NCBI GenBank assembly: GCA_018826295.1
Contig: JAHJZX010000040.1
Span: forward strand, 1-64,000
DNA length: 64,000 nucleotides
From: Gammaproteobacteria bacterium
GTDB lineage: Bacteria > Pseudomonadota > Gammaproteobacteria > Enterobacterales > Alteromonadaceae
Direction: 5' to 3'
Numbering within the stretch: the stretch's first letter is position 1; every line of letters begins with the position of its first letter. The notes beneath the pieces were generated by a model that ran no database searches, was not told the DNA's origin, and saw only the letters and a program-made list of their open reading frames with translations. This document shows, in pieces, positions 48,752-63,964 of this stretch. The position numbers and the translations under genes were made by a program.

Positions 48752-49531
48752 TTAAATATGCAGATTTAGCAGGCGGGCGGTACGTCGTGCATAGTAAGCA
48801 AAGCCGGCTTTAGAGCGCTTGTCCTGCAAAATCCAGTCATGCGCCTCTTTCGCTAAAGCCGGGTCAATGTCTTTTATCGGTGCTACGGCTTCGGCCAACA
48901 ACTGCAGTCGTGCCGCCCTTTCACACTGGATCGCCAGCATACAGGCTTCTTCGATAGACTTACCGGCCACCACCAGGCCATGGTGACACAGCAGTGCGGC
49001 ACGCTTATCAGCCAGCACAGCCGTGATAATTTCGCCCTCTTCATTACCTACCGGCACCCCGGGCCAGTTTGGCAAAAAAGCCACATCGTCATACAGCATA
49101 CAGCTGTCCATATGCGAAACTTTTAATGGCACCCCAAGCATTGATAGCGCCGAGATATGTGGCGGATGAGTATGAATAATACAGCGCACATCCGGCCTGG
49201 CGCGATAAATCCAGGAGTGAAACCGGTTAGCCGGGTTAGCCATACCTTCGCCTTCGATTACCTGCAGATCCTCATCTACTGTCAGTAAATTGTCAGTGCT
49301 GATCTCGTCAAAACCAAAGCCAAAAGGCTGGGTATAGTACTGCGCCGGGTAGTCACATCTTGCGGTGATCTGTCCTGCTAAGCCGGAATCATGGCCCTGT
49401 GCAAACAGGATCCGGCAGGTCAGTGCAACTTTTTGCTTGTCACTCCATAAACCTTCAGGCAAGTTTTGCGCTATATCTGCCCGGCTTTTGGCCATAATCG
49501 ATTGCTTATCCATACTCAGGGTACTGTTCAT
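48752..49531 (-). CDS. Class II aldolase/adducin-family protein
   Basis: A 259-residue protein of the L-fuculose-phosphate-aldolase fold. The zinc-binding histidines are in CIIHTHPPHIS and LCHHGLVVAG, and the family opening is CRILFAQGHDSGLAGQITARC. It lacks a clear sugar-phosphate specificity. Members of the adducin-like subgroup occur in secondary-metabolite loci as decarboxylases or aldolases, but the reaction here is unknown. It is the last gene of the ten-gene minus-strand cluster, 14 bp after the diiron protein gene. AAAGAG precedes the ATG. Confidence 0.8.
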   Translation of the reverse strand: MNSTLSMDKQSIMAKSRADIAQNLPEGLWSDKQKVALTCRILFAQGHDSGLAGQITARCDYPAQYYTQPFGFGFDEISTDNLLTVDEDLQVIEGEGMANPANRFHSWIYRARPDVRCIIHTHPPHISALSMLGVPLKVSHMDSCMLYDDVAFLPNWPGVPVGNEEGEIITAVLADKRAALLCHHGLVVAGKSIEEACMLAIQCERAARLQLLAEAVAPIKDIDPALAKEAHDWILQDKRSKAGFAYYARRTARLLNLHI

Positions 49532-49545
49532 TGCGGTCCGGCTCT

Positions 49546-50259
49546 TTAAGAAAACTCAATATTAGCAGCATTTAGTTCGGCGACGCTGCCAGCTTGTTGC
49601 TCAATAGCAGTAAAGAAGTTCAGCCGCGCGTTTATCAGGGCTTCACCGGCCTGGATCATATTCTCCAGTTGAAACTCATTCGATCCGGCTATTTCCAGCA
49701 TAATGTCGTTCAGGGTTTCTGCATGCCCGTCGTCGCATTCAATATGCAGGATAAAGAAATGGATTTGCTCATCGGCAATGCCGTGATGCCGGAAACCCGA
49801 CACCAGGCTACTGTACAGCACCGGCACTATAGCTTCAGCACCAATACACAAAGCGCCCAGCCCAAAGGCCGGGTTAAGCTCGCGGCATTGGGCAAACATC
49901 ACATCAATCAATGCCTGGGTTTGTTGGTTTATCTTGCTTGAATCCAGCTCAATGGCAAAAGACTGCAGCATATCTTTATAAATTAAATGATGTGGTGTCG
50001 GGCTGTCAGGCGCAAGACCCAGTTCTTCAAAGAGATTCTCTGCCAGCGTAAGCACCTGATTATTATTAGGAAGATTTGACATCATCGCACAAAGATAACG
50101 GGTAAAATACGCGCTGTAAAAGCCGTGCTGTAATAGAAAACTCTTCAATTCGGCCAGTGAAACCGAGCCGTCGCGACAGCGTTTTAAAAATGAGTGCTGA
50201 TATAACTTATCAGATAGCCGTTTAATAGCTAAGTTGAGCTTTTCGATACTTTGAGCCAT
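49546..50259 (-). CDS. Heme-oxygenase-like diiron oxygenase (HDO / TenA-PqqC-like fold)
   Basis: A 237-residue all-helical protein of the iron-containing redox enzyme family. The probable ligand set is E79 (ENLFEELG), H90/H91 (TPHHLIY), E142 (GAEAIVP), H172, D176/D177 and H179 (HIECDDGHAE), which matches the HDO pattern seen in SznF, UndA and BesC and in the pABA-forming CADD. Known HDO reactions are N-oxygenation, oxidative C-C cleavage and desaturation; which applies is unknown. GGAGAGG lies upstream of the ATG at 50259, so the longer frame to 50307 is not used. In a cluster that makes aminobenzoate, N-oxygenation of the amine is an attractive guess. Confidence 0.78.
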   Translation of the reverse strand: MAQSIEKLNLAIKRLSDKLYQHSFLKRCRDGSVSLAELKSFLLQHGFYSAYFTRYLCAMMSNLPNNNQVLTLAENLFEELGLAPDSPTPHHLIYKDMLQSFAIELDSSKINQQTQALIDVMFAQCRELNPAFGLGALCIGAEAIVPVLYSSLVSGFRHHGIADEQIHFFILHIECDDGHAETLNDIMLEIAGSNEFQLENMIQAGEALINARLNFFTAIEQQAGSVAELNAANIEFS

Positions 50260-50355
50260 TTGCCCTCTCCATTCATGTTTAATTTTTTTGCTTAGCGAGC
50301 TAATCAAAATAACTTTAAATTATTGATTTATATAATATTTAATATTAGGACACTG

Positions 50356-52851
50356 CTAAACCACATTAATATCGGCACTGACATCCAGCCACAGGGCTTT
50401 CAGTTGTTGCCGCTGCAATTTGCCAGTTACCGTTCTTGGCAAGGCTGCGACATACTGGAACAAATGCGGGTATTTCCAGCGCTCCAGATGTTGCTTGGCG
50501 TACTGCTTTAGCTCGTCAGTAAACTGGTCATGGTCTGTGCGTTGCGTCACCACAAAGGCTTTGGTTCGGGTGGTGGTTTCATGATCGCCAACGGCTATTA
50601 CGGCAATTTCTGTCACATCAGGATGGCGGATTAATACCGCTTCAATATCCTGCGGCGACACCCATTGTCCCGACACTTTAACGACGTCATCAGCGCGGCC
50701 AAAGAAGCGAAAATAGCCGTCGTTATCGCGTACAAACATGTCATTAGTGCAATACCAGCCGTTACTAAAGCGCAACCTGGTGGCTTCGATGTTGTTTTCA
50801 TACCGGCTGGGTAACGTCGGGCCTTTTAGCCATAGTGTGCCAATATCGCCCGGCGCGCAGATAACGCCGCGTTCATTAATTATTTTGGCCGTAAAACCCG
50901 GTACTATTTTGCCGGTGTCACCAAATTGTCGGTTAGTGCCGGGTATGTTAGTAAGATAGGTGCTGAATGCTTCTGTCGAGCCTAAACTGTCTAAAATAGT
51001 GGCGTTGAATTTTGCCTGCCATTTTCTGTTTAACTCAACGGGCATCCGATCACCGGCCGATACAAAACAGCGTACCGCGCGAAAATCATCATCATGGATA
51101 CCGGCGTGATTCAACAAAAACTGATAAACCGTTGGTACCGCGTAAATAATTGTCGGTTGGTACAATTTAATGGCCGCGACAATTTCATCCATCGAAAGCG
51201 TAGCCGGTGATATCACCGCTGTGGCGCGATTAAACAGCGCGTTAAAGCAGTTATGCAGCCCGAAGGCGAAGCTCATCTTCGACACCGAGAATGCCCGGTC
51301 ACTGCTATTAATATGCAGCACCTGGGCAGCATAACGCTCTGCTGCCACGACAAAATCCTGCTGCCGGTGCAGTATTAACTTCGGTACCCCTGTGGTACCC
51401 GATGTAAACATACCAATGGCGTAATCAAAAGGGCTTGTCCGCGCCGGCAACCATGACGTTGTCATGCTGGTGCTAAGCTGCAGCGGGGCAATGGCGGTCA
51501 GTTCCGAGACAATCGTTGTCTGCTCGGTAAATTGCCTGGCATTGGCCTGAAACTGCCGGATAAAGTCCTGGTCGGCAAACACATGCGTCACCGCTGCCGA
51601 CTCCAGAGCATGGCTAATGGTCTTTTGCTTAAACAGCGGATTAACAATGATGGCAATGCAGCCGGCATACATTAACGACAGTACTGCTACGGCAAAATTC
51701 GGGCTGTCGTTGGCAATAATGGCAACACGGCTGCCAGGGGTAATATTAAGCCGGGCAATGTTGCTAACGCAGTTCAACACTGAAGCAGGCAGATCGCCAT
51801 ACTGCAGCTGAGCATCGGCATGACAGATCGCAATTTTATCGGCATTGATTTCGCTGGCGATAGTACAGATTTTGTCAGCAAAATTAAAAAACGAGACATT
51901 ATCTTTTTCTTTGGCAAACAACATAGCATCTTCGGTAATGTCATCACGCCAGGCCGACGCTGTAGCGATATCGCTGTGCAGCATAGTGAGAAAATTACGC
52001 CGTTGTTCAAACTCGTCAGCTGTGTCTTTGCTGGCAAGCGATATCTCTGTGGTAACCAGGCCTGCATTTGCAATCAGTTTAGCGAAAAGCTGCTCCTGAC
52101 TATTTAACTCTTCTGCAGTGCTATCTATAAACGCAACATCGATATTCAACGCAGTAGCAACAGTTGCAATAAACTCTTTCAGCGGGATCTTGTACTGGTA
52201 TTGCCGGTTATTAGCCGCCTTATCGGACAGCATTGTGTTCAGATCAGCTGCAAAAGTTGAGAAAAACAGATAGCTGGTGTCAGCGACAAACAGGCGGACT
52301 TTTCTGCCATTTAGCGCCGCAGCAAAATCCACCATAGCAAAAATATAACGATTCAACGCTGTATCAATGCTGTTTAAGTCGTTGCCAACCGGGCTTAGCA
52401 GGTTGGCAAACGCCATTTCCCTAACATCAATAACCTGACTGGCCGCGCCCTGCTGCGCTGCGCCATAGCGGTAATTGATTATGTTGCCCGCACCTGCTGC
52501 GTCAAGCCCGCCACTCGGGTTAGCTGCAACCACCCAACTAGCCGTCTGGTTTAGCTGCAGCTGCCATTCTGCCACTTTTGGCCCCAGCTGCGACAGCGGC
52601 TCGCCTGGCCCAAGCTGACTGTCGTGTTGAAAAATAGCCAGTTTTGCTAACTGCTGCTGGTTTAACAGCTGGCCGTTCTTGGTGGCAATCTCCTGCAGAT
52701 AGCGCTTAATGTCTGGCAGTTGCAGGGTGTCGGCCGTGGGCTGCGCCAGCATTAACGTCAGCTGCTGCGTGGTGTTATCCGTTAGCAAGGCTAACAGCAG
52801 CCTGGCAGACAGGTAATGTAGTTCTGTAAACACGAGATGATGTTTTAGCAC
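50356..52851 (-). CDS. Benzoate-CoA-ligase-like enzyme with an N-terminal degenerate reductase-like extension
   Basis: An 831-residue protein. Residues about 320-830 are an ANL adenylating enzyme: the P-loop MFTSGTTGVPKLI is at 481-493, LDSLGSTEAF is the A5 region, and the C-terminal catalytic lysine is in TVTGKLQR. The middle (KMSFAFGLHNCFNAL, YAVPTVYQFLL, CFVSAGDRMP, GKIVPGF) is that of benzoate-CoA ligases, so 4-aminobenzoate is a fitting substrate. The first ~310 residues are not part of an ANL enzyme. The order FTELHYLSARLLLALL, then LGPKVAEW, then ASWVVAANPSG, resembles a thioester-reductase SDR whose glycine loop is lost. It starts at a GTG that overlaps the pabAB stop by 7 bp. Confidence 0.72.
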   Translation of the reverse strand: MLKHHLVFTELHYLSARLLLALLTDNTTQQLTLMLAQPTADTLQLPDIKRYLQEIATKNGQLLNQQQLAKLAIFQHDSQLGPGEPLSQLGPKVAEWQLQLNQTASWVVAANPSGGLDAAGAGNIINYRYGAAQQGAASQVIDVREMAFANLLSPVGNDLNSIDTALNRYIFAMVDFAAALNGRKVRLFVADTSYLFFSTFAADLNTMLSDKAANNRQYQYKIPLKEFIATVATALNIDVAFIDSTAEELNSQEQLFAKLIANAGLVTTEISLASKDTADEFEQRRNFLTMLHSDIATASAWRDDITEDAMLFAKEKDNVSFFNFADKICTIASEINADKIAICHADAQLQYGDLPASVLNCVSNIARLNITPGSRVAIIANDSPNFAVAVLSLMYAGCIAIIVNPLFKQKTISHALESAAVTHVFADQDFIRQFQANARQFTEQTTIVSELTAIAPLQLSTSMTTSWLPARTSPFDYAIGMFTSGTTGVPKLILHRQQDFVVAAERYAAQVLHINSSDRAFSVSKMSFAFGLHNCFNALFNRATAVISPATLSMDEIVAAIKLYQPTIIYAVPTVYQFLLNHAGIHDDDFRAVRCFVSAGDRMPVELNRKWQAKFNATILDSLGSTEAFSTYLTNIPGTNRQFGDTGKIVPGFTAKIINERGVICAPGDIGTLWLKGPTLPSRYENNIEATRLRFSNGWYCTNDMFVRDNDGYFRFFGRADDVVKVSGQWVSPQDIEAVLIRHPDVTEIAVIAVGDHETTTRTKAFVVTQRTDHDQFTDELKQYAKQHLERWKYPHLFQYVAALPRTVTGKLQRQQLKALWLDVSADINVV

Positions 52852-55067
52852 GCCTCTACCCCTTGTTGTTGTTGCTGACTTTGCTGGTCAAAAGCAGGCG
52901 ATAGCACGGCAACGTTATCCTGTACAGGCGTTACCACAGGTGGTTTAGTCTCAGCACCGACAATGTTGTAACGGTTTTCATCACCGGTGGCGTATTTTGC
53001 AATGGTGCGCAGCAGGGCCCGCGCCTTGATCAGTATTTCTTCAAACTCTTCATCGGCATTCGACAGCCAGGTAATAGCACCGCCAACACCAATTTCGAGG
53101 TTGCTGCCCTGCACAACCAGGGTTCTGATCGCTACATTAAGTTCAGCCGCACCATTTAACGACATATAGCCAATAGCACCGGAATAAATGCCGCGCGCAG
53201 ACGATTCCAACTCATCTAATATTTCTAATGTTCGGGTTTTGGGTGCCCCTGTCATAGAGCCGGGCGGAAAGGTGGCAGCGAATAAACTTGCCAGCGATTC
53301 ATGTTCGTTCAGTCTACCCCGCACCGTTGAAACCAGCTGGTGCACCGAGGCATAAGTTTCAATTTGCATCAGCTTGGGTACCCAAACCGAACCGGCTTCA
53401 CAGACCCGGTTTAGATCATTGCGCAGTAAATCCACAATCATCAGATTTTCAGCATGATCTTTTTCGCTCTGTGCCAAATCTGTTATCAGTGCCGCATCCT
53501 CAGCCGCCGTGGCGCCGCGCTTTCGGGTTCCTTTAATCGGCTTGGCTTCAACCACAGCATTACGGCCAACACTGACAAATTTTTCCGGCGAAGAGCACAG
53601 GATGGCAAAGTCCGGGCTATGTAAGTAAACCGACCTTGGCGCCGGGTTAACCTGGCGCAAAACAGTGTAAAGGGCCAGGGGCTCGACATCGAGCGTAGCG
53701 CGCAGCCGGTTTGTTAAACAGATTTCGTAACTTTCTCCCCGCCGGATATAGTCCATGCAGCGACTGATTTTGCTGGTGTATTGCTGATAGTCATCTTCAA
53801 GATAAAAGCGGATGTCCTGCTGCGACCGCGCCGTGTTGACGGCTGACGCAGAACTTTTTTCCGTTGCAGGCATAGTCGCCAGGCGTTGGCTAACCGTGCT
53901 AAGCCATTGCTCAGATGCCGCAGCCGCACGGTGCGGGCTGTGCTCTTTTTCGATAATAACGGCGTAAACCAGTCCGGTTTTATGATCAAATGCAATAAAT
54001 CTGTCGACAAAGATCCCGGCGGCGTCCGGCTGTTTTGCGGCGTATTTATTGCTTACGGCTTCCGTCTCGGCTTTCAGTTCGTAACCCTGAAAGCCAACCA
54101 GACCGCCACAAAAATCAAATGGCAACTCTTCCGCCCCGGCCACGGTTGCGGCCAGTGTCTGCTTAACAAAAGCGCAGTAGTCACTGTGCAGTTCATGTTG
54201 TTTGCCATGGGCATTGAGCAACACGGTTTGCTTTTTCATATCGTATGAAAACCAAAACGACTCCGGTCCGCTTGCATCGCCGATAAAGGAAAACCTGGCC
54301 TCGGCATTGTTAACAGAGCTGGAATCGAGCCAAAAGCTATACTGCGAATCACCGTACAGCCGTTGAAAAACCTCTGCCGGCTGAAACGTGCTGTTTAGCT
54401 GCTGATAACGACAGCGCCAGGCTACAGGCGGCACTGCTGCTTGCGGCAGGTCAAGCTGCTCAGTTGCCGCCCGCTGCACACTGCTGCGGTTTACATTATG
54501 CTGCTGCACCAAGTTCTTAAAGTTTTCGATCAGCTGGCGACCACAATCAGTAGAGATCGATTCAGGATGAAATTGCACCCCCCACATCGGCCTGTGCCGG
54601 TGTTCTATCGCCATGATCATGCCATCTTCGGTAAAGGCAGTGGCAATTAACTCAGTGGGTAACGGTTGAGAGGCGATCAGCGAATGATAGCGCACCACCG
54701 TTAAAGGATTGGGTAAGTTGCTAAAAACACCGCTGCCACCGTGTAAGATCTTACTGCTTCGGCCATGATAAGGCATGCCGGAAAGCTCAACGGTCCCGCC
54801 CAGACTCGCCACGATAGATTGATGGCCTAAACAGATCCCCAACAGCGGTTTGCTGGTGTGTTTTATGATCTGCTCACATATGCCAATATCACTCTTGTTA
54901 TTGGGCGTGCCAGGTCCGGGTGAGATCACTATGGCGTCATAGTCTTCAAAATCGACATGGGTATCATCGTTTCTTACCACCACCGGCAAGACGGCAAAAA
55001 CTTCACTAACATACTGATACAGGTTAAATGTGAAGCTATCATAGTTATCTACAATAAGAATTTTCAC
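52845..55067 (-). CDS. pabAB: Fused aminodeoxychorismate synthase (PabA-PabB)
   Basis: It converts chorismate and glutamine to 4-amino-4-deoxychorismate. The 740-residue fusion has a glutamine amidotransferase (1-190; catalytic C79 in GICLGH, H168 and E170 in FHPES) and a chorismate-binding component (about 220-715). The key motif is PIKGT (511-515): the lysine marks aminodeoxychorismate synthase, whereas anthranilate synthase has PIAGT. GGLVGFQGYE and PPGSMTGAPK are further family blocks. It starts at a GTG with an excellent AAGGAGGTGCT. A fused synthase within a ligase/aminotransferase cluster points to secondary metabolism, not folate housekeeping. Confidence 0.9.
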   Translation of the reverse strand: MKILIVDNYDSFTFNLYQYVSEVFAVLPVVVRNDDTHVDFEDYDAIVISPGPGTPNNKSDIGICEQIIKHTSKPLLGICLGHQSIVASLGGTVELSGMPYHGRSSKILHGGSGVFSNLPNPLTVVRYHSLIASQPLPTELIATAFTEDGMIMAIEHRHRPMWGVQFHPESISTDCGRQLIENFKNLVQQHNVNRSSVQRAATEQLDLPQAAVPPVAWRCRYQQLNSTFQPAEVFQRLYGDSQYSFWLDSSSVNNAEARFSFIGDASGPESFWFSYDMKKQTVLLNAHGKQHELHSDYCAFVKQTLAATVAGAEELPFDFCGGLVGFQGYELKAETEAVSNKYAAKQPDAAGIFVDRFIAFDHKTGLVYAVIIEKEHSPHRAAAASEQWLSTVSQRLATMPATEKSSASAVNTARSQQDIRFYLEDDYQQYTSKISRCMDYIRRGESYEICLTNRLRATLDVEPLALYTVLRQVNPAPRSVYLHSPDFAILCSSPEKFVSVGRNAVVEAKPIKGTRKRGATAAEDAALITDLAQSEKDHAENLMIVDLLRNDLNRVCEAGSVWVPKLMQIETYASVHQLVSTVRGRLNEHESLASLFAATFPPGSMTGAPKTRTLEILDELESSARGIYSGAIGYMSLNGAAELNVAIRTLVVQGSNLEIGVGGAITWLSNADEEFEEILIKARALLRTIAKYATGDENRYNIVGAETKPPVVTPVQDNVAVLSPAFDQQSQQQQQGVEAC

Positions 55068-55130: not shown

Positions 55131-57782
55131 TTAACTGAGCTCGGCTATTCGTTTTTCGTTTGCAATGGCTTCGCGGTTGTTACTTTGTGCCGGTGCAGGC
55201 ATTGGATACCCCAAAGGCGTGAACCCCTGCTTGCGTGCTACCTCGGTAACATAGCGGGCCTGTGAATATTCAATGGATTTGCCAACACTAAAGTAGCCGT
55301 CACAACCTTCGATTGCCAACGCTATGGTCTCTGACAAGCAGGCTAAATTGATACCAGGTGGCAACCCAACCATATTACAATCGCCGTAGCGCAGCACCTC
55401 AGGTTGCACTACCAGGCCACCTTCGAGTACCTGCACGCGTTGCCCTGGCTGCACCATAAAGTCGAACGGGCGGGCGGTATCAATTGCCACAGCGCCGGCT
55501 TTTAAAAATTCAGTGCTAAGAAATGGTTTGCCTTCACTGGTTGCCGACACCACATAATCAGATTGCTCCAGCGCGGTTTTGTAACAATCGCATGTGCTGA
55601 TACCGAGCGAACTAATCAGGTTATCCAGCAATAAGGCGTCTGCTACAGTACTGAGCATGTCGGCCGGCACAGCGGCAGCGCTGCCGATATAGCGGGCTAG
55701 CTCCGGCATCGATTGCTGCACATAATGGCGAATATTGTGGATAACAGAACCCGGTTGCACTTGCTGCTCGGTACTGAATGCCAGCTGGCATAAGGTGGGT
55801 GTCAGCTCCTGCAGCAGGTGTTTTTCGGTCCCCGGGCGGCCCATCAGAATGATGTTGTCACCCCAGTGCGCCAGCTCACTTACCATCAGCTTGCCAACCG
55901 CACCGCGGGCACCGATCACACTGATCACAGAGCCAACCAGATTATATCCCGCCGCCTCGATAACGGTTGCCGTAGTGCTCATTGCCGTTAAACTGTTACC
56001 TGTGGTAAACGACAACCCATCGATGTCATCTAACATTTTCTCACCGCCGCGGGTGATCACCGACGTGTAGGCACCCAGCCCAAAAAACTCGACGCCTTCA
56101 CGCCGCGCTACGGCAATGTAGTCTTTAATCAGGTTTTCTTTTTCAGCGGCAGGTAAGTCCATCATATCGCGCGGTGCCATGGTGCTCATAATCATAATAC
56201 CGTCAGCAAAGGCGTGTTCATTACTGACACAGAATTTCAGCGCCACGCCCGGGCTTGGGTCCACCGCACCAACTTCCATCACTAATTGACATAAATGCTG
56301 CTTTTCGTCGTCGCTGAAATTAGCGTGAAAACACTGGGGTAACATGCGCACGCAATCATCTATCACGGTAAAGTGCATTAAAAAGGCGAATTTTTTGCCG
56401 CGTTTTTTGCCTTGCTGCACATAGTGCGTCGGTACAGTTTGCCCGGCAATTGGCACCGGAAACGCCTGCTCCAGCGCGGGCAACTCGGTATAGGGTTTTT
56501 CAATAAGTCCGGCCATCAGGATGTCGTACCGACCATTTTGAATTATGCGGCACAGCTGCTCTACTGCAGTAAAAAAGTCGCTAATATCTTCGGCACTGGT
56601 ATTTAGTGGTGGCTCAAAGCGGATCGAGCATTTATCTGACAACAGCGGCATTACCAGCATCTTGTGCCGGTTAAGCAAGTAGCTGCACAGCAACCAGGCT
56701 AAAGAGCCGCTATTTTGCAGATAGGTGACAAAGTAATTGCTATCTGCAGCAACATCATTAAATTGAAAAGCCCGCATTAAACCGGCGCCACGCCAGGAAA
56801 AAATACCGCCATATTGCCCGGCCAGGCGTTCGCAGCACTCGTCAACCTGAGCAGAAATGTTTTTGACGTGCTGCAGTGCCTCACCATTGTTATGGCGCAG
56901 CTGTTTAATAACCGCACGGCCAACACAGGTCGCTAAACCATTGTTAGCGAAAGTGGAGCTGTGTTTGCGATCGAACTCTGCTGTGGCGACCCAATTGGAA
57001 TAAATGGCCGCACCGGTTGGTATTAAACCGCCGCTGAGTGATTTTGCCAGCAATAATATATCCGGTATTACACCGATATCCATCGCCACACACATGGCGC
57101 CAGAGCGGCCCAGGCCGGTTTGCACTTCATCAAAGATCAGTACTGTACGGGTTTTAGCGCATAACTCCCGCGCCCGCGCCAGCCAGGCAACATCTGCGAC
57201 ATGCATGCCGCCTTCGCCTTGTATCGGTTCGACGATAAAAGCGGCATATTGCTGCGTTTCCAGTTCGGCTTCCAGCGCAGCAAAATCGTTCAGCACCACC
57301 TTATTAAAGTTTTTATCATCCTTGCGCAGATGATCAATGTTGTGCCGGCGTGAATTGGTAGCCAGCAGTGCCGAATAGGTTTTGCCATGAAACGAGCGGT
57401 CAACCGACAGTATTTTCTTGCGGCCGGTTTTGATCCGCGCCAGCTTAAAGCCTACCTCAACTGTCTCAGCGCCACTGTTGGCAAAGGTTACATTGCTGGC
57501 CCAGCCGCCAACGGCCTCAATCAGCTCTTGTGCAAAAGCTTCGGTGGCCTGCTGAAATATTGGCTGAGTAAACACCGGCGCTTTATTTTGCAGGTGTTCA
57601 ATAACGGCATTAACACAAAATTCCGGGTTATGGCCAAAGGGCAAAGCACCATACTGCGATAAGTAATCACGGACAACGCCGCCGTCCTCAGTATAAATTT
57701 TATTGTCTTCACAGCGGGCGATGGCGATATCCAAATCAAGTTTGCCCATTAAAAACTTGCGATAGTTGTTGATCAGAGACAC
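55131..57782 (-). CDS. Class III aminotransferase fused to an acyl-ACP-reductase-like domain
   Basis: An 883-residue fusion. Residues 1-430 are a class III PLP aminotransferase with SGAE, D218 in FDEVQTGLGRSG and the PLP lysine K247 in LLAKSLSGG. Residues about 450-883 resemble cyanobacterial long-chain acyl-ACP reductase: LGAYTSVITRGG, LSFTTGNSLTAMST, the NADPH loop VIGARGAVGK and the terminal KQGFTPLGYPM. Together they would reduce an acyl thioester to an aldehyde and transaminate it to an amine, as proposed for TamH in tambjamine biosynthesis. The GTG at 57782 with AAGGGG is preferred; the frame back to 57869 crosses a 16-bp tandem duplication and lacks a site. Confidence 0.78.
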   Translation of the reverse strand: MSLINNYRKFLMGKLDLDIAIARCEDNKIYTEDGGVVRDYLSQYGALPFGHNPEFCVNAVIEHLQNKAPVFTQPIFQQATEAFAQELIEAVGGWASNVTFANSGAETVEVGFKLARIKTGRKKILSVDRSFHGKTYSALLATNSRRHNIDHLRKDDKNFNKVVLNDFAALEAELETQQYAAFIVEPIQGEGGMHVADVAWLARARELCAKTRTVLIFDEVQTGLGRSGAMCVAMDIGVIPDILLLAKSLSGGLIPTGAAIYSNWVATAEFDRKHSSTFANNGLATCVGRAVIKQLRHNNGEALQHVKNISAQVDECCERLAGQYGGIFSWRGAGLMRAFQFNDVAADSNYFVTYLQNSGSLAWLLCSYLLNRHKMLVMPLLSDKCSIRFEPPLNTSAEDISDFFTAVEQLCRIIQNGRYDILMAGLIEKPYTELPALEQAFPVPIAGQTVPTHYVQQGKKRGKKFAFLMHFTVIDDCVRMLPQCFHANFSDDEKQHLCQLVMEVGAVDPSPGVALKFCVSNEHAFADGIMIMSTMAPRDMMDLPAAEKENLIKDYIAVARREGVEFFGLGAYTSVITRGGEKMLDDIDGLSFTTGNSLTAMSTTATVIEAAGYNLVGSVISVIGARGAVGKLMVSELAHWGDNIILMGRPGTEKHLLQELTPTLCQLAFSTEQQVQPGSVIHNIRHYVQQSMPELARYIGSAAAVPADMLSTVADALLLDNLISSLGISTCDCYKTALEQSDYVVSATSEGKPFLSTEFLKAGAVAIDTARPFDFMVQPGQRVQVLEGGLVVQPEVLRYGDCNMVGLPPGINLACLSETIALAIEGCDGYFSVGKSIEYSQARYVTEVARKQGFTPLGYPMPAPAQSNNREAIANEKRIAELS

Positions 57783-57795
57783 GTGTTTTCCCCTT

Positions 57796-57827: not shown

Positions 57828-57925
57828 AGTGCAATTAGGTACAGCCCGGGCTAACTGCGTACATTTCAATTCACCTTAACCGTCAGCGGCTCAGACGAGA
57901 CAGCGCTGACTAAAGGCGTGTGCTG

Positions 57926-59065
57926 TCAGACAGCTGGCTGACACAATTCATGCTGAATTAACTCCACGGTCTCATTGCGTGACAGCGGATGAAAATTCAG
58001 ACATTGGCTAACTTGTAACAGGTATCTTAGATCTTCCGTAGCCAGGTACTTCATGCCGCCCAGGCCAATCAACGCCAGGCGGTTGGCACGGTCAATACAT
58101 TGGGCAACCAGAGTGCGAACACAAATCGCCAGCGCCACTAACTCCTCGCTCGGTGGTTGGGCGTCAAGCAAAGCGGCGGCGCCCTCCAGCGCCAATGCCG
58201 CCGACTCCAGCTCAATGGCCAGCTGGCTAACATCGGTGGCATTGCCAGGTCTGGCAGCGAAGCAACTGGCAGCCAGCCGTGACGCCACCCCCAGATAAGA
58301 TGCGGCGATTAGCAGCTGAAAACTGCTCAGGCCACACAGCTCCGTTGTTTCTATGGCTTGTTTCGCCTGTGACGGTGCATTGCCCGCCTCCATCAACACT
58401 ACGTTGTCTTTTGCCACGGCAAAGTCAGTAAATACTAATTCATTGCTGCTGGTTGCTTTTAAGATAGACGCGGGCCAAAACGGCACTTTGCGGATGTTTT
58501 CCGCGCGCATATCTTCAACAATCAGCAGGCCTCTGGCAGTGGCGTCATCCGCTAACGGGTTGGCGATACCGATCAAAGCGATATCGGCATAGTCCGCCAT
58601 AGTGCACGGCTTCTTACTGCCATTAATAACAAAGCCGGCTGAGCCTGGTACACAACTTACCGACGAGCTAAGAATATTGGCACCGGGGCGGGCTTCGGCA
58701 AATCCGCTGCAAAACACCAGCTTATCCATAGCGACTTGGCTCAACACCCGGTCTTTTGCTGCCAGCGACGCATCCATCGCTGTAGAAAGGCAATAGGTCG
58801 TGTGGTTATGCATCGTCATCATTATCGCCAACGACGGCGACAAACTACCGACATAACGATGTATCCGCACGGCGGCGGTCAGCCCGGCGGCAGCGCCCCC
58901 CCACTGGGTTCCGACTAACAGGCCGGGATTGGCATAGTGTTTAAAATACTGCACAAGCTCACGACCATCACCCGATTCAAGCTGCGACAGCGATTTTTGC
59001 TGCAATATGGCAGACAGCCCGGGTAACAGCTTATCTGTGGTATATTTTTCTTTATCTAAAAACAT
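57926..59065 (-). CDS. Acyl-CoA dehydrogenase-family flavoprotein
   Basis: A 379-residue acyl-CoA/acyl-ACP dehydrogenase homologue. The fold is visible in the helical N-terminus, GTQWGGAAAGLTAAVRIHRYVGSLSPSLAIMMTMHNHT, the middle beta domain (FAEARPGANILSSSVSCVPGSAGFVINGSKKPCTMADYADIALIGI) and the C-terminal helices. The usual catalytic glutamate position is not evident to me, so it may use a different base, as in the beta,gamma-desaturating members of antibiotic clusters such as TamT. It would introduce a double bond in an acyl chain before reductive amination. AAGGTG precedes the ATG; the gap to the fusion gene is about 140 bp. Confidence 0.72.
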   Translation of the reverse strand: MFLDKEKYTTDKLLPGLSAILQQKSLSQLESGDGRELVQYFKHYANPGLLVGTQWGGAAAGLTAAVRIHRYVGSLSPSLAIMMTMHNHTTYCLSTAMDASLAAKDRVLSQVAMDKLVFCSGFAEARPGANILSSSVSCVPGSAGFVINGSKKPCTMADYADIALIGIANPLADDATARGLLIVEDMRAENIRKVPFWPASILKATSSNELVFTDFAVAKDNVVLMEAGNAPSQAKQAIETTELCGLSSFQLLIAASYLGVASRLAASCFAARPGNATDVSQLAIELESAALALEGAAALLDAQPPSEELVALAICVRTLVAQCIDRANRLALIGLGGMKYLATEDLRYLLQVSQCLNFHPLSRNETVELIQHELCQPAV

Positions 59066-59107
59066 AACAACACCTTATTTAAGCACGCCTGGCGCCAGAC
59101 ATTGGCC

Positions 59108-59437
59108 TTAGTGCGTAACCGTTTTTGAAAATACGTTGATAACAAAGACACCAAGGATGATCATTAACAACCCCAGCATCGCGGGCAGATCCGGTACTTC
59201 TTTAAACGCCACGGCACCAATCAGGGTAATCAACACTATGCCTAAACCAGCCCAGATGGCGTAAGCAACGCCAACCTGAATAGACGACAACGCCAATGAC
59301 AAAAAGTAAAATGCGGCCGCATAACCCAGCACCACAAATATCGACGGCGTAAGCTTGGTAAACTCCCCCGACATCTTTAACGCTGTGGTACCGATAACTT
59401 CAGAAATTATCGCCAGCCCCAAAAACACATAATGCAT
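59108..59437 (-). CDS. SMR-family multidrug exporter (EmrE/QacE-like)
   Basis: A 109-residue inner-membrane protein with four membrane helices. The essential membrane-embedded glutamate is E13 in LAIISEVIGTTALK, and VGVAYAIWAGLGIVLI is the family block in helix 3. The pair-type gene partner of guanidinium SMRs is absent. As a proton-coupled exporter of cationic or amphipathic compounds, it is well placed to export a cluster product with an amine or alkyl chain. AGAGGAATGAG lies before the ATG. Confidence 0.85.
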   Translation of the reverse strand: MHYVFLGLAIISEVIGTTALKMSGEFTKLTPSIFVVLGYAAAFYFLSLALSSIQVGVAYAIWAGLGIVLITLIGAVAFKEVPDLPAMLGLLMIILGVFVINVFSKTVTH

Positions 59438-59527
59438 TGCTCATTCCTCTTTAAAAAATACTAAGTGATTAAATAAATTTACGGTTAATTACGCTTCAGG
59501 CTACACAAGCAAGGTTATTGCCGGCCG

Positions 59528-60895
59528 TTAAGCAGTTTTATCAAAATGGCGGCCAATGCTGCCATTAATCTTATGGCTGTCGGCAACAGCACATATTTCT
59601 TCCAGCACACTAACAAAAGGCGCCATTACCGACTCCTGAACTGGCTTAGCAAAGCATCTGTCGTCATAAACCAGCGTTAACTTTAACCGGCCACGGAATG
59701 TACAGAAGAAAAAGCCCAGCCGCAGCGGGCCGCCAACATTAGGGAAACTGAAGAAATCTGTTACTTCTGCCGCGCCAAACTGATAAGAGTCAAAATTGAA
59801 TACGCCAAGATTAGAAATCAGCATGTTGCTTCTTAGCTTATCGTCCAACACTTTGGCGACATATTGCTTTTTAAAGCGTTCAGGTAGCAGTAAAAACACC
59901 GACACCCAAATCTTTTGCTGGTACCAGTCTTCAAATATTTTTCCGTGTTTCAGCCCGGCGATGTAAGAGGTAATATCATCAATAACCTGCTCATCCGGCT
60001 TGTTGGTATAAAAGTCTTTAAAATGATTAATGCTGTAGGCGTCATAGGACATTGACACATCTTCATCAGAAAACTGCCGTAAGGTCAGTACATCCAGCAA
60101 CTGAAAGCCGGGTATATCTTTAGCGCCATTAAATTTTTGTTTAAATTTAATCATCGCCAAAACAAACAACACATGCACCGAGGTGTTGTAGTGTTTAGCG
60201 GTTTGTTTCAGTTTGGCCAGTAAATTTTCCGGTAAGGCATCAGTGTATATCGAGCGCATAGCATCTGCCGCCGGATCCGGAATATTCAGGCCAGACACAG
60301 CAAAATCCGGTTTGCTCAAAAAAGCTTTAATGCCGCGGCAAAATATCGCGACCCGCTGCATAAATGACTGTTTATTTAAGCAAACACGGCCGACGTCGCG
60401 GTTTTGTATATAGTGCTCGTCACTGTACACCGGCGTACCTTGCGTTAAAGCCGTGTATATTTTGGCGATGTCTTTAAACAGAATAAAGCCGGATTGTGCA
60501 TCGGCGGCCGCATGGTGCGACACGCTTTGCAAATAGCTGACGTTATTGCCGGCATCAATCAGGTAAAACCTGATTAACCGCTCCTGCGTATAGTCGGCCT
60601 GCCGGCACCAGGTGTGACTGGCTATCTGCTGTTTTAATGCCTCGTCCGACAGCGTCGAGTAGTCGCACCGCTGAACTGAAATTGGTGTATCAGCCGGCAG
60701 TGGCTGCCAGTGGTAAGCAAACCGGCCGGGCTTAATACAGCACTGTAAAACAGGTTGCTTATTCACCGCTATGCTAATGGCTTGCTTGAGTAAGCCAAAA
60801 TCAATGTCTCCGCTAAGCTGGATAATTTCGGCAGAGTGGGAGTTCATTAACTTGCCCCACAAAATATAATTTAAGTTTAGATGCGTCAGCTTCAT
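59528..60895 (-). CDS. Stand-alone condensation-type acyltransferase (HHxxxD)
   Basis: A 455-residue protein of the NRPS condensation / PapA / alcohol-acetyltransferase superfamily. The catalytic motif is HHAAAD (127-132), and the C-terminal block with NLGVFNFDSYQFGAAEVTDFFSFPNVGGPLRLG corresponds to the bridge and DFGWG-type region of these enzymes. No adenylation or carrier domain is attached. It would join an activated acyl group (aminobenzoyl or fatty) to an amine or alcohol. It lies between the second ligase and the SMR exporter. AAGG lies 8 bp upstream of the ATG. Confidence 0.78.
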   Translation of the reverse strand: MKLTHLNLNYILWGKLMNSHSAEIIQLSGDIDFGLLKQAISIAVNKQPVLQCCIKPGRFAYHWQPLPADTPISVQRCDYSTLSDEALKQQIASHTWCRQADYTQERLIRFYLIDAGNNVSYLQSVSHHAAADAQSGFILFKDIAKIYTALTQGTPVYSDEHYIQNRDVGRVCLNKQSFMQRVAIFCRGIKAFLSKPDFAVSGLNIPDPAADAMRSIYTDALPENLLAKLKQTAKHYNTSVHVLFVLAMIKFKQKFNGAKDIPGFQLLDVLTLRQFSDEDVSMSYDAYSINHFKDFYTNKPDEQVIDDITSYIAGLKHGKIFEDWYQQKIWVSVFLLLPERFKKQYVAKVLDDKLRSNMLISNLGVFNFDSYQFGAAEVTDFFSFPNVGGPLRLGFFFCTFRGRLKLTLVYDDRCFAKPVQESVMAPFVSVLEEICAVADSHKINGSIGRHFDKTA

Positions 60896-60935
60896 TTTAT
60901 CGGCCTTGTTTAGTGGTAAACCTCTGATGCAGACA

Positions 60936-62612
60936 TCAGATCACGCTAAAATTGTGTACAATTTCATCGCCGCGCTGCTGCAATAGCAAAGCAACCTCAG
61001 ACTTTAATTGTCGCTTTAACACCTTGCCGGTTAAACCACGCGGGAAATCGCTGAGGGTAAAGACAAAATGCTTAATATCCCTGGCCAGTTCGCATTCCTT
61101 GATAGCCGAAACGATACCGGCATAGGCATCTGCCCGTACATTGGACTGTATAACGCAGGCAACCGCCTGGCTGTCGGCATCGTTTAATTTGACCCCCAGC
61201 ACGCAGGCGTTTAACACTCCCGACACTTTAATAATTTGCTCTTCCAGCGCCAGTGACGACACTTGCCCGCTGTTTGTCTGAATTAAATTTACCCCGCGAT
61301 CCAGATGATAAAAGCGTCCGCGCTTATCTTTGTAAACGATGTCCCCTGTCCACCAGCAGTTATCGTGAAACACGCCAAGCATTTTTTCACTGTTGTTCCA
61401 GTAACCTTTGAATACCGTCGGCCCGCTAACCACAAGCCGGCCCGGCTGATTAACCGCAACTTCGTTGCCATATTCATCCACAACATTAACCTGCAAACTA
61501 TTGTTAATCGGCTTGCCAAGATAACGGCCAAAGCGGTTGCTATAAGATGAAATACTGCGCATCAAAGCCGGCACGCCGGTTTCTGACGACCCCAATAAGT
61601 CAATAAACAGCGATTTCACTATCACTTTGCCAAACACCCGCAGTAATGCGCCCTTTTGCACAAAGGCGCGCTGGTGCACTTCGTAGCTGACATCCGCCAC
61701 TGACACCCACATCTTGATACTGTCCAGCCGGTAGTTGTCCAGACCTTCGTTATACATCCGCGCATAGTTGCCGGCAAAACTGACAAAACTGGTGATGTTG
61801 TATTGATCAATATTGCTTAAAATAAATTTTGCACTGTACTGCTTCACCAGCCACCAGGTTTGATCACTCGACACCAGGGTCACAATAAAAGCACAATGCG
61901 AAATCCAGTGATTACACGGCATTACCAGCATCATGCGTTCATCTTTTGAGGTAAAGACGGCTTTTGAGTTGGATAACAGCACGGCAACCAGGGTTGAATC
62001 GGTATGGATCACTGGCTTGGGCAGGCCGGTGGTACCGGAGGTATGCACTATTAAGACGACATCATCCGGGCTTAGCTTTACCGCGCTAAACTCATCAGTC
62101 TCGTCTTTGGCCGCATCAGCCAGATAACAGCCGCGCGCATCAAGGTTTTTGTTGTCGAGACTGATGTAGTTATCGATATACTGTGACGGCGCTTCGCCTT
62201 GCCAGATACAGGATTCGGTGATCAGCAGTTTGACACCGGTTTGCGCCAGATATTCGTCGAGTTCTGTTTTATCAAAGCCGCCATTCATCGGCACAGCTAT
62301 GCCTCCGGCCCTGACTATAGCCTGAAACCACAGGTGGTATTCCATGCTATTGCTTAACAAAATACCGACGCGCTGGTAGCGGCTGATCCGGTACTTATTT
62401 TTTAGAATGTTGCTGCGGATATTAACCTGACGTTTTAACGACAGCGCTGACCAGGCGGCAGGAGATTCAAGCTGTTGTTCTGATAACTGGAAAAATATGC
62501 TCTTGTCACCATGCAGCTCAGCCGTTACGTCCAGCAAGCTGGAGACACTAAGCCTTTCGTTCTGGTTGGCCAACAGCTTTTTTAACGCTGCTAAATTGCT
62601 ATGATAGGACAT
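60936..62612 (-). CDS. Acyl-CoA/acyl-AMP ligase (ANL family)
   Basis: A 558-residue adenylating enzyme. The P-loop is HTSGTTGLPKPVI (190-202), LLGSSETG the A5 region, WWTGDIVYKDKRGRFYHLDRG the A7/A8 hinge, and LTGKVLKRQL holds the catalytic lysine. It is distinct from the 831-residue ligase in the same cluster. A fatty or branched acid is a likely substrate, but the pocket cannot be read. It has no carrier domain at its C-terminus. TCGGAGG lies before the ATG. The gap to pabC is 108 bp and AT-rich with no clear feature. Confidence 0.8.
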   Translation of the reverse strand: MSYHSNLAALKKLLANQNERLSVSSLLDVTAELHGDKSIFFQLSEQQLESPAAWSALSLKRQVNIRSNILKNKYRISRYQRVGILLSNSMEYHLWFQAIVRAGGIAVPMNGGFDKTELDEYLAQTGVKLLITESCIWQGEAPSQYIDNYISLDNKNLDARGCYLADAAKDETDEFSAVKLSPDDVVLIVHTSGTTGLPKPVIHTDSTLVAVLLSNSKAVFTSKDERMMLVMPCNHWISHCAFIVTLVSSDQTWWLVKQYSAKFILSNIDQYNITSFVSFAGNYARMYNEGLDNYRLDSIKMWVSVADVSYEVHQRAFVQKGALLRVFGKVIVKSLFIDLLGSSETGVPALMRSISSYSNRFGRYLGKPINNSLQVNVVDEYGNEVAVNQPGRLVVSGPTVFKGYWNNSEKMLGVFHDNCWWTGDIVYKDKRGRFYHLDRGVNLIQTNSGQVSSLALEEQIIKVSGVLNACVLGVKLNDADSQAVACVIQSNVRADAYAGIVSAIKECELARDIKHFVFTLSDFPRGLTGKVLKRQLKSEVALLLQQRGDEIVHNFSVI

Positions 62613-62720
62613 TACGCCTCCGATATATCAACATATCTGTGGTTAAAATAAGTTAAGTTGTCTAAACAGGCTGTGCTTTTACAGACTGTGTTTTTAGCTG
62701 TTTGCCAAATGCTGTGCTGC

Positions 62721-63539
62721 TTATACGTCTGAGTCCTGCAGGTTTCGGCTGACAATATCCTGCATAACGGCGCCAATGGTAAAAATGCTATTATCAAGTT
62801 GTGACAAAGGCATTACGCCAAGTAAGGCGTTACAAATGGCCACTGAGTCGGCAGCCAGCAACTCCTGCAGCGTTATATCTTTAACCACTGCCGGCCTGTT
62901 TTCTGCTTGCAATATGGCAAGCACTTTTCTGCGCAGCACGCCGCACACGCCCGCCCGGTTAAGTTGCGGTGTATAGATCACCCCATCTTTCTCAAGCAGG
63001 ATATTTGACATGGTGCCTTCAATGACAAACCCCTGCGCATCCAGCATCAGGCCTTCTTTAATCGCCGGATCATGCCATTCCGCTCTGGCCATGACCTGCT
63101 CCAGCCGGTTCAGATGCTTAATACCCGCTAAGTTAACATTGTCAGACAACCTGGTTTTACAGGTAATAGCTCTGACTCCAGTAATATAGGCGTTGGCATC
63201 CTGTGTATATTCAGGCGCAGACATCACAATAACACTGGGCTTTTCGTCACCGCTAAAGGCGTAACCTCTTTGCCCGACTCCCCGGGTGACGATGATTTTC
63301 AGCACCATATTGCTGCCGGTAGCACTAATTACGCTATCAACATCGCGTTGCAAGGCGGCTAAATCCGGTAGCGGTATTCTTAACGCCTGGCAACCTTTTA
63401 CCAGCCGGTCCAGATGCAGGCGCCACAGCTTTGGCTGCGAATGTTTAACTTTTACCGTTTCGAACAAGCCATCGCCGTAGCACAGACCACGGTCTTTAAC
63501 GCTAATCTCGGTGTTTTGCTGTCCATTTACAATAATCAT
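62721..63539 (-). CDS. pabC: Aminodeoxychorismate lyase, class IV aminotransferase family
   Basis: It eliminates pyruvate from 4-amino-4-deoxychorismate to give 4-aminobenzoate. The 272-residue protein tracks E. coli PabC along its length: VKDRGLCYGDGLFET (14-28), LAGIKHLNRLEQ with the PLP lysine K141, and AICNALLGVMPL at the C-terminus. The ATG at 63539 matches the family start; the longer frame to 63587 does not. AGAGAC lies upstream. It is the first gene of the minus-strand cluster, and with pabAB gives a complete route from chorismate to pABA. Confidence 0.9.
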   Translation of the reverse strand: MIIVNGQQNTEISVKDRGLCYGDGLFETVKVKHSQPKLWRLHLDRLVKGCQALRIPLPDLAALQRDVDSVISATGSNMVLKIIVTRGVGQRGYAFSGDEKPSVIVMSAPEYTQDANAYITGVRAITCKTRLSDNVNLAGIKHLNRLEQVMARAEWHDPAIKEGLMLDAQGFVIEGTMSNILLEKDGVIYTPQLNRAGVCGVLRRKVLAILQAENRPAVVKDITLQELLAADSVAICNALLGVMPLSQLDNSIFTIGAVMQDIVSRNLQDSDV

Positions 63540-63933: not shown

Positions 63934-63964
63934 GATGGCCGCGGGCATTTCTGACAAACTGAGG

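What the first reader, a model, noticed from the sequence alone, without database searches (positions are those of the whole stretch)
48752..63539. Undescribed-looking cluster: 4-aminobenzoate synthesis joined to a fatty-amine branch
Ten co-directional genes with small gaps or overlaps combine a dedicated chorismate-to-pABA pair (PabAB with PIKGT; PabC with LAGIKHLNRLEQ), a benzoate-CoA-ligase-like enzyme, a second acyl ligase, an acyl-CoA dehydrogenase homologue, a thioester reductase/aminotransferase fusion, a stand-alone HHxxxD acyltransferase, an SMR exporter, an HDO diiron enzyme and a class II aldolase. Acyl ligase, dehydrogenase and reductase-aminotransferase is the logic of tambjamine fatty-amine synthesis. 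Adding an aminobenzoyl unit suggests an N-alk(en)yl 4-aminobenzamide or a related product. I know of no characterised cluster with this exact set.
Basis: partly seen in the sequence, partly recalled or inferred. Interest (0 to 1): 0.88.

Follow-up and report, generated by a model that had tools for sequence, protein, structure and literature searches.

The report
Aminobenzoate–fatty amine cluster with N–N enzymes
A conserved marine-bacterial gene cluster looks built to join a fatty amine to 4-aminobenzoate, and it carries relatives of enzymes that make rare nitrogen–nitrogen bonds, so it may make a new type of such compound.

Summary
Ten co-directional minus-strand genes (48752-63539) encode a second 4-aminobenzoate (pABA) pair, two adenylating ligases, a TamH-type transaminase/thioester reductase, an HHxxxD transferase, an SMR exporter, a heme-oxygenase-like diiron enzyme (HDO) and a class II aldolase. 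Other PabB and PabC copies lie elsewhere in the genome. All ten genes recur in Rheinheimera pleomorphica and a Pseudoalteromonas, nine of ten in Alkalimonas.

The interpretation needs a major change. The 'acyl-CoA dehydrogenase' is VlmH-like; VlmH is the amine N-hydroxylase of valanimycin-type azoxy pathways. Just past the window end (contig 64064-64501), divergent from pabC, lies a 145-aa VlmO-like protein. VlmO is the membrane N–N bond-forming enzyme; its four essential residues are all conserved. MMPL and LolA-like export genes follow. VlmA and VlmB were not found in the genome, so pABA activation plus the HHxxxD transferase may replace aminoacyl-tRNA transfer.

Best reading: a fatty amine is N-hydroxylated, joined to pABA and converted to an N–N (hydrazine/azoxy-type) product. 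A hydroxamate or amide without an N–N bond remains possible. Leisingera plasmids carry a related pABA/fatty-amine core without the N–N genes. My searches found no print report. The chemistry is inferred; nothing was assayed.

The parts
62721..63539 (-). pabC: aminodeoxychorismate lyase, second copy (another on C56)
   Evidence: NCBIfam NF004761 288.5 bits over cut-off 260; second copy C56 264.3 bits
60936..62612 (-). ligA: adenylate-forming enzyme grouping with CreM/AvaA6-type ATP-dependent diazotases; most likely activates (or diazotises) the aminobenzoate
   Evidence: best NCBIfam model AvaA6 diazotase, far under its cut-off (189.8 v 975); tree of 20 chosen rows, 100/100 with CreM-like and AvaA6-like proteins
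59528..60895 (-). stand-alone condensation-type (HHxxxD) acyltransferase
   Evidence: PF00668 46 bits; HHxxxD in 4 of 4 gammaproteobacterial clusters, degenerate (SHxxxC) in Leisingera
59108..59437 (-). SMR exporter (no match in the Alkalimonas cluster)
   Evidence: PF00893 102 bits; synteny
57926..59065 (-). VlmH-like flavin N-hydroxylase (acyl-CoA dehydrogenase fold), proposed fatty-amine N-hydroxylase
   Evidence: 31-36% over about 360 aa to six chosen VlmH-like proteins, five of them from loci that also hold VlmO, the Nostoc one not; shared FHPxSR motif; homologue within about 3 kb upstream of VlmO in 13 of 13 actinobacterial loci
55131..57782 (-). TamH-type fusion: class III aminotransferase (N) and AAR-like thioester reductase (C); proposed to make the fatty amine
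   Evidence: PF00202; AAR/PigE matches; AKSLSGG, GARGAVG, ACLSET motifs in 4 of 4
52845..55067 (-). pabAB: fused aminodeoxychorismate synthase, PIKGT
   Evidence: TIGR00553 358 bits over cut-off 328.4; closer to Leisingera cluster PabB (314 bits) than to the other PabB of its own genome (224 bits)
50356..52851 (-). ligB: about 315-aa N-terminal domain of no known family plus benzoate-CoA-ligase-like ligase
   Evidence: 2v7b 255 bits; N-domain 28-40% identical in 3 relatives, no significant match in Pfam or PDB
49546..50259 (-). heme-oxygenase-like diiron oxidase/oxygenase with a full set of candidate ligands (E78 or E79, H90, E142, H172, D176, H179)
   Evidence: PF14518; CADD family 56.9 bits, under cut-off 200; ligand spacing in 4 of 4
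48752..49531 (-). class II aldolase (PRK07090), last shared gene
   Evidence: 424.8 bits over cut-off 261; follows the HDO in 4 of 4 clusters
63884..63932 (.). two palindromes TCTCAC-NN-GTGAGA in the divergent promoter region, possible operators
   Evidence: 2 exact matches; 0.02 expected with up to 1 mismatch; one copy between the same genes in R. pleomorphica and Alkalimonas, none in the Pseudoalteromonas loci
63933..64000 (+). upstream region of the divergent VlmO-like gene. The gene itself lies BEYOND the window at contig C73 64064-64501 (145 aa, D51/H81/H109/D113), followed by an MMPL/RND exporter (64515-66929) and a LolA-like protein (66923-67726)
   Evidence: VlmO-like: 34% end to end to VlmO-like proteins, the 4 columns invariant in 16 of 16 homologues, essential VlmO residues from PMC11705231. 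Exporters: PF03176 and PF17131, in all three relatives and beside some other AT-AAR genes

Best explanation
A dedicated pathway makes an N-oxidised, most likely N–N-linked, conjugate of a fatty amine and 4-aminobenzoate. Steps: (1) PabAB and PabC make pABA from chorismate (families shown, activity inferred). (2) ligB activates a fatty acid; the TamH-type fusion reduces it to the aldehyde and transaminates it to the fatty amine (architecture shown, substrate inferred). (3) The VlmH-like protein hydroxylates the amine to an N-alkylhydroxylamine (family shown, substrate inferred). (4) ligA activates pABA and the HHxxxD transferase acylates the hydroxylamine with it, in place of VlmA and seryl-tRNA (inferred). 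(5) The VlmO-like membrane enzyme converts the O-acyl hydroxylamine to an N–N product (metal residues shown, reaction inferred). Because the amino group is para it cannot reach that nitrogen within one molecule, so the attack must come from a second molecule or the rearrangement must differ. (6) The HDO oxidises the hydrazine (VlmB's job) or the aryl amine (inferred). (7) MMPL/LolA-like and SMR proteins export a lipophilic product (inferred).
For: In 13 of 13 actinobacterial VlmO loci a VlmH homologue lies upstream of VlmO: directly in 11, with an aminotransferase-like gene between in 2 (L025, L028); VlmB matches in 13, VlmR in 12, VlmA in 11 of 13. One of the 13 (L023) is the record the query proteins came from. 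The four essential VlmO residues D51, H82, H110, D114 (PMC11705231, passages) fall on invariant columns in the 3-row and 16-row alignments. Paraburkholderia phymatum joins the same TamH-type fusion to VlmO, VlmA and VlmH, so TamH-made amines plausibly feed VlmH. The window type keeps VlmH and VlmO, while VlmA and VlmB were not found in the whole genome, and adds its own pABA genes. The parts stay together in four genomes. Leisingera plasmids carry a pABA/TamH/ligA/HHxxxD-like core; NJS201 gave no VlmH, VlmO or HDO match by tblastn, NJS204 shows none by annotation, so the pABA and fatty-amine halves belong together and the N–N half looks like an add-on.
Against: No metabolite or enzyme assay exists. 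Known VlmO chemistry needs an alpha-amino acyl group; [quoted passage not shown] VlmH-like proteins also occur without a VlmO match (Nostoc plasmid), so VlmH alone does not mean N–N. PtTamH did not reduce C12-CoA and needed an ACP-bound acyl chain, yet none of the ten proteins matched a carrier-protein family. None of the ten matched a flavin reductase family. The HDO is not a VlmB homologue (hhalign probability 1.5). The genome-wide absences of VlmA and VlmB have no positive control in a relative. ligA's activity is open. ligB resembles benzoate-CoA ligases, so it might activate pABA instead. The aldolase has no assigned step.
Confidence: 0.5

Rival explanations
1. The end product is a hydroxamate or amide without an N–N bond: N-alkyl-(N-hydroxy)-4-aminobenzamide. 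The VlmO-like protein only moves the acyl group or has another role.
For: Ligase plus HHxxxD transferase is ordinary amide logic; the Leisingera core has these genes without a VlmH or VlmO match; the para-amino group rules out the known VlmO rearrangement within one molecule; a VlmH-like gene occurs without VlmO in Nostoc.
Against: The VlmO-like protein keeps all four essential residues, and every VlmO-like locus found, 13 actinobacterial, P. phymatum and the window type, also has a VlmH-like gene. The HDO is conserved in 4 of 4 clusters and would have no clear role.
Confidence: 0.27
2. ligA is a true ATP-dependent diazotase: it turns pABA (or the conjugate) into an aryl diazonium with nitrite, which couples with the N-alkylhydroxylamine to an N-hydroxytriazene or is reduced.
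For: ligA groups 100/100 with CreM-like and AvaA6-like proteins, apart from 11 other ligases, in a tree of 20 chosen rows. The AvaA6 diazotase is the best NCBIfam model for ligA of the window and its three close relatives. The third and fourth of its 39 PDB matches, 8tf7 and 9bq0 (122.5 bits each), are the N–N ligase Tri17 (identity from PMC11705231). Leisingera has a PobA-like hydroxylase in the cluster and, in NJS204, a formate/nitrite transporter nearby.
Against: Score far below the AvaA6 cut-off (190 v 975). ligA is a separate branch from the diazotases (95/94), and the tree carries long-branch and composition warnings, ligA rows included. A FadD fatty-acid ligase outscores Tri17 in the PDB list (139 v 122.5). 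For Leisingera ligA the generic model PRK06187 scores higher (221 v 200). No CreE homologue in the genome (no positive control), so no obvious nitrite source.
Confidence: 0.12
3. ligB and the TamH-type fusion act on pABA itself, making 4-aminobenzaldehyde and 4-aminobenzylamine, so there is no fatty chain.
For: ligB is closest to benzoate-CoA ligases (255 bits) and matches an anthranilate-CoA ligase at 228 bits; a ligB-like ligase is fused to the aminotransferase/reductase in Leisingera.
Against: AAR-family reductases and TamH act on fatty acyl thioesters (PMC9594044, passages); MMPL/LolA-like genes beside other AT-AAR genes suggest lipids.
Confidence: 0.08

Closest known systems
Valanimycin/azodyrecin-type azoxy clusters (VlmH, VlmO, VlmA, VlmB)
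   Same: VlmH-like N-hydroxylase and VlmO-like membrane protein with all four essential residues
   Different: VlmA and VlmB not found in the genome; pABA synthesis, TamH-type fusion and HHxxxD transferase instead; HDO not homologous to VlmB
Tambjamine fatty-amine module (TamA, TamT, TamH)
   Same: TamH architecture: aminotransferase then AAR-like reductase
   Different: no carrier-protein domain found, no TamT-like dehydrogenase, no bipyrrole genes among the ten
Leisingera plasmid cluster (NJS201, NJS204; no characterisation found)
   Same: PabAB, PabC-like, ligA, HHxxxD-like protein, aminotransferase/reductase fused to a ligB-like ligase, annotated MMPL, LolA-like, a possible outer-membrane barrel (weak)
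   Different: PobA-like 3-hydroxylase; no VlmH-, VlmO- or HDO-like match (tblastn on NJS201, annotation on NJS204)
Nocuolin A (noc) cluster of cyanobacteria
   Same: aminotransferase, acyl-ACP reductase, N-monooxygenase, fatty acid activation and an N–N bond (PMC5333925, passages read)
   Different: pABA synthesis not mentioned in the passages; 1,2,3-oxadiazine product; genes not compared by sequence here
Azoxymycin and aureothin pathways
   Same: pABA-type aryl amine and diiron N-oxygenase chemistry (recalled, and abstracts in the listings)
   Different: AurF/AzoC-type oxygenase and polyketide synthase; aryl–aryl azoxy (recalled)

Membership tests
VlmH/VlmO (valanimycin-type) azoxy pathway | VlmO homologue with D51, H82, H110, D114 | tested here: met
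   D51, H81, H109, D113 on the same columns (residues); the gene starts at 64064, beyond the window
VlmH/VlmO (valanimycin-type) azoxy pathway | VlmH-like flavin amine N-hydroxylase | tested here: met
   157-206 bits to six chosen VlmH-like proteins, FHPxSR motif shared; no published VlmH sequence itself was compared
VlmH/VlmO (valanimycin-type) azoxy pathway | VlmA aminoacyl-tRNA-dependent transferase | tested here: not met
   no match in the whole genome at E 0.001 (no positive control); present in 11 of 13 actinobacterial loci
VlmH/VlmO (valanimycin-type) azoxy pathway | VlmB diiron oxidase | tested here: not met
   no match in the genome at E 0.001 (no positive control); HDO not related to VlmB
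VlmH/VlmO (valanimycin-type) azoxy pathway | VlmR flavin reductase | tested here: inconclusive
   no match in L012 or L046-L048 and no such family among the ten proteins; rest of the genome not searched
Tambjamine fatty-amine module | TamH: N-terminal transaminase, C-terminal AAR-like reductase with Rossmann motif and catalytic Cys | tested here: met
   TamH anatomy from PMC9594044
Tambjamine fatty-amine module | TamT-type acyl dehydrogenase | tested here: not met
   VlmH-like instead; TamT sequence itself not on hand, the G244 dehydrogenase served as a stand-in
Tambjamine fatty-amine module | TamA: adenylation domain fused to an ACP | tested here: not met
   no carrier-protein domain among Pfam matches of the ten proteins at E 0.001
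4-amino-4-deoxychorismate synthase/lyase (PabAB, PabC) | curated model cut-offs and PIKGT | tested here: met
CreM/AvaA6 ATP-dependent diazotase | falls inside the diazotase clade and passes the AvaA6 cut-off | tested here: inconclusive
   100/100 with the clade but on its own branch, 95/94; 189.8 v 975 bits. One CreM-like row (331 bits) and the AvaA6-like row (396 bits) of the tree are also under that cut-off
CreM/AvaA6 ATP-dependent diazotase | nitrite-forming CreE/CreD partner | tested here: not met
   no CreE homologue in the genome at E 0.001 (no positive control); CreD not tested
Heme-oxygenase-like diiron oxidase (HDO) | six His/carboxylate ligands with HDO spacing | tested here: met
   E78/E79, H90, E142, H172, D176, H179 in 4 of 4; E-30-H-4-D spacing as in SznF (E281, H311, D315). 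Metal binding itself not testable here
CADD self-sacrificing pABA synthase | TIGR04305 cut-off 200 bits | tested here: not met
   56.9 bits

The most novel reading that the evidence does not exclude
A VlmO-type enzyme makes an N–N bond between a fatty-alkyl hydroxylamine and the aryl nitrogen of pABA, with ligase-activated pABA and an HHxxxD transferase replacing aminoacyl-tRNA transfer, and an HDO replacing VlmB. This would be an enzymatic alkyl–aryl hydrazine/azoxy pathway, beyond the alpha-amino-acid limit now assumed for this enzyme type.
Probability: 0.33. Interest if true: 0.9.

Novelty: new variant of a known kind. Interest (0 to 1): 0.74.

Why it matters
N–N bond enzymes are few, and in the review read VlmO-type chemistry is described only with amino-acid partners. 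A cluster that pairs VlmH- and VlmO-like proteins with its own pABA synthesis instead of VlmA makes a direct test possible: can this enzyme type join an alkyl nitrogen to an aryl amine or another non-alpha amine? It also shows VlmH/VlmO pairs in Gammaproteobacteria (four genomes here) and in Paraburkholderia, linked to TamH-type fatty-amine synthesis, and it points to a related core in Leisingera for which I found no description.

Tried and rejected
TamT-like desaturase: rejected, since the dehydrogenase matches six VlmH-like proteins at 157-206 bits against 28.5 bits for an acyl-CoA dehydrogenase beside another TamH-type gene. PigE-type fusion: rejected; PigE has the reductase first, while here and in TamH the aminotransferase comes first. 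pABA genes as the only copies: rejected. HDO as VlmB: no support. HDO as CADD-type pABA synthase: cut-off not met. ligB N-domain as VlmA or any known family: no support; its single-sequence AlphaFold model failed (mean pLDDT 35). A genome-contig scan with the ligB N-domain matched 22 stretches and confirmed none; that negative is blind, for the three relatives later found do encode it. In 398 genomes of the phylum it matched only the own genome. The VlmO profile and the HHxxxD protein each matched 1 of 369 sampled genomes of the class, the own genome, so the cluster is rare in those samples; the three close relatives came from the other collection. The VlmO-like model (mean pLDDT 71) was not compared with other structures. 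ParB-like regulator: only a weak match (TIGR00180 E 0.0013; Spo0J E 0.044; no Pfam match; no PADLOC match).
Full report
What is there. The ten minus-strand genes exist as described, with gaps of -7 to 143 bp. The cluster PabAB has PIKGT and passes the PabB cut-off; PabC passes its cut-off. The genome has other copies: a PabB on contig C58 (PIKGT) and a PabC on C56, presumably for folate, besides a PIAGT protein on C86 that I take for TrpE. The cluster PabB is closer to the Leisingera cluster PabB (314 bits) than to the C58 PabB of its own genome (224 bits).

The cluster goes on past the window. The window is part of contig C73 of 158,701 bases. Just beyond its end, on the plus strand, are a 145-aa protein (64064-64501), an MMPL/RND exporter (64515-66929) and a LolA-like protein (66923-67726), followed on the minus strand by a possible outer-membrane barrel and a weakly ParB-like protein. 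The divergent promoter region between pabC and the 145-aa gene holds two exact TCTCACNNGTGAGA palindromes (63884, 63919); 0.02 matches with up to one mismatch are expected by chance.

The acyl-CoA dehydrogenase homologue is VlmH-like. A search of plasmid records hit 15 records, among them a Streptomyces lavendulae plasmid in which the homologue stands near a flavin reductase, a 'VlmB-like protein' and a seryl-tRNA ligase. That set is the valanimycin-type azoxy set (PMC9379638, first of three parts of the text read; PMC11705231, passages). Against six VlmH-like proteins that I chose (Paraburkholderia, Streptomyces, Nostoc, Saccharothrix, Salinispora, Microbispora) the window protein scores 157-206 bits and shares a C-terminal FHPxSR motif; against an acyl-CoA dehydrogenase beside another TamH-type gene (genome G244) it scores 28.5 bits, and that protein has FSGTS there. 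The own genome has no second relative at E 0.001. The Nostoc locus has no VlmO match, so a VlmH-like gene can occur without VlmO.

The 145-aa protein is VlmO-like. It aligns end to end (34%) with the S. lavendulae gene next to the VlmH-like gene and with a P. phymatum gene. VlmO, the membrane N–N bond enzyme, has four essential residues, D51, H82, H110 and D114 (PMC11705231). All four columns are invariant in the three-row alignment, where the window genome has D51, H81, H109 and D113, one residue being missing before H81, and in 16 of 16 homologues. A scan of genome contigs with this alignment matched 74 stretches, of which 16 were confirmed: three close relatives and 13 actinobacterial loci. 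All 13 carry the VlmH-like gene upstream of VlmO, directly in 11 and with an aminotransferase-like gene between in two (L025, L028). VlmB matches in 13, VlmR in 12 and VlmA in 11 of 13; one of the 13, L023, is the plasmid the queries came from. None of the 13 matched the cluster PabAB or PabC.

Conservation of the window type. In Rheinheimera pleomorphica all ten genes plus VlmO-like, MMPL, LolA-like, barrel and ParB-like genes are present; in Pseudoalteromonas sp. CIP111854 all ten plus VlmO-like, MMPL, LolA-like and barrel genes, with the two halves arranged differently and no ParB-like match in the 20 kb locus; in Alkalimonas amylolytica nine of ten (no SMR match), with VlmO-like, MMPL, LolA-like and ParB-like genes and no barrel match. 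The palindrome occurs once between the same genes in R. pleomorphica and Alkalimonas and was not found in the Pseudoalteromonas loci. The type is rare in the samples searched: the reductase half over 394 genomes of the order gave 8 with a match, only the own genome close, and two other genomes of the genus none; a VlmO profile and the HHxxxD protein each hit 1 of 369 genomes of the class, the own genome.

What is missing and what may replace it. The window genome has no match to VlmA or VlmB (no positive control in a relative). The HDO is not VlmB, but it has a full set of candidate diiron ligands in 4 of 4 clusters and is distantly related to an HDO (hhalign probability 88) present in 6 of the 13 actinobacterial loci, whose place in those pathways I do not know. 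P. phymatum joins a TamH-type fusion to VlmO, VlmA and VlmH, with no VlmB or VlmR match in 49 kb; this suggests that TamH-made amines can feed VlmH.

The amine and the ligases. The fusion has TamH order, aminotransferase then AAR-like reductase, with Rossmann, PLP-lysine and catalytic-cysteine motifs in 4 of 4. The TamH transaminase accepts C7-C14 aldehydes; its reductase did not take C12-CoA and needed an ACP-bound chain (PMC9594044, passages), and no carrier protein matched among the ten, which is a gap in the model. In Leisingera NJS204 one 4188-bp gene, judged from the NJS201 match and the tree, carries the same fusion plus a ligB-like ligase. It lies in a plasmid cluster with PabAB, a PabC-like gene, ligA, an HHxxxD-like protein, annotated MMPL, a LolA-like gene and a PobA-like hydroxylase; NJS201 gave no VlmH, VlmO or HDO match by tblastn, and NJS204 shows none by annotation. 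This argues that ligB serves the reductase and that ligA, next to pabC and the HHxxxD gene in both types, serves pABA. Against it, ligB is closest to benzoate-CoA ligases. ligA groups with CreM- and AvaA6-like diazotases at 100/100 but on its own branch, in a tree with long-branch and composition warnings, and far below the AvaA6 cut-off. Diazotase action is possible, but no CreE-like nitrite-forming enzyme was found.

Likely mechanism. Fatty acid to fatty amine (ligB, TamH-type); amine to N-alkylhydroxylamine (VlmH-like); O-acylation with activated pABA (ligA, HHxxxD) in place of VlmA; N–N bond formation (VlmO-like); oxidation (HDO); export (MMPL, LolA-like, SMR). The weak link is chemical: in valanimycin the amino group of a seryl ester ends up bound to the hydroxylamine nitrogen, and the review says the partner amine is restricted to amino acids. 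A para-amino group cannot do this within one molecule, so either a second pABA unit attacks, or the VlmO-like enzyme does something new, or there is no N–N bond and the product is a hydroxamate. I hold about 0.5 for an N–N product by this route, 0.33 for the alkyl–aryl bond.

Print. Ten literature searches listed no paper that, by title and abstract start, describes this cluster or an alkyl–aryl azoxy pathway. The library holds only open-licence papers; the J. Am. Chem. Soc. 2023 paper on the azoxy cascade, cited, did not appear in the listings and I did not look it up.

Verdict. A real, conserved, apparently undescribed cluster. The pABA plus fatty-amine idea stands; the dehydrogenase was misread, and the more surprising part, a VlmH/VlmO pair without VlmA or VlmB, lies partly outside the window.

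Noticed in passing
L012:9314-10414 (contig C73 69314-70414) and window 63884-63932: A weakly ParB-like protein follows the export genes in the three genomes that have the TCTCACNNGTGAGA palindromes and was not found in the 20 kb Pseudoalteromonas locus, which lacks them. It may be the cluster's regulator.
   Followed up: partly
L018:20392-31603 (Paraburkholderia phymatum STM815 pBPHY01): A TamH-type fusion together with VlmO-, VlmA- and VlmH-like genes and, by my reading of the translation, a fatty acyl-AMP-type ligase and a P450: looks like a fatty-amine-derived azoxy cluster.
   Followed up: partly
L055, L058 (Leisingera NJS201, NJS204 plasmids): A 1395-aa aminotransferase/reductase/ligase gene beside PabAB, a PobA-like hydroxylase, a diazotase-like ligA and, in NJS204, a formate/nitrite transporter. 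In NJS201 PabAB and the fusion are annotated as several pieces.
   Followed up: partly
   Followed up: no
L025, L028 (Microbispora oryzae, Salinispora cortesiana): VlmH and VlmO are separated by a gene matching the class III aminotransferase half of the window fusion.
   Followed up: no
L050:11340-16264 (genome G198): A PigE-order fusion (reductase first) directly after a 796-aa gene, resembling a PigD/PigE pair; the PigD name is recalled.
   Followed up: no
window 44813-48715: Histidine-rich TonB-dependent receptor and a CobW-type GTPase next to the cluster; probably metal (zinc) uptake, function recalled.
   Followed up: no
window 51910-52851: ligB N-terminal domain of about 315 aa, conserved in four genomes and matching no known family.
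   Followed up: partly
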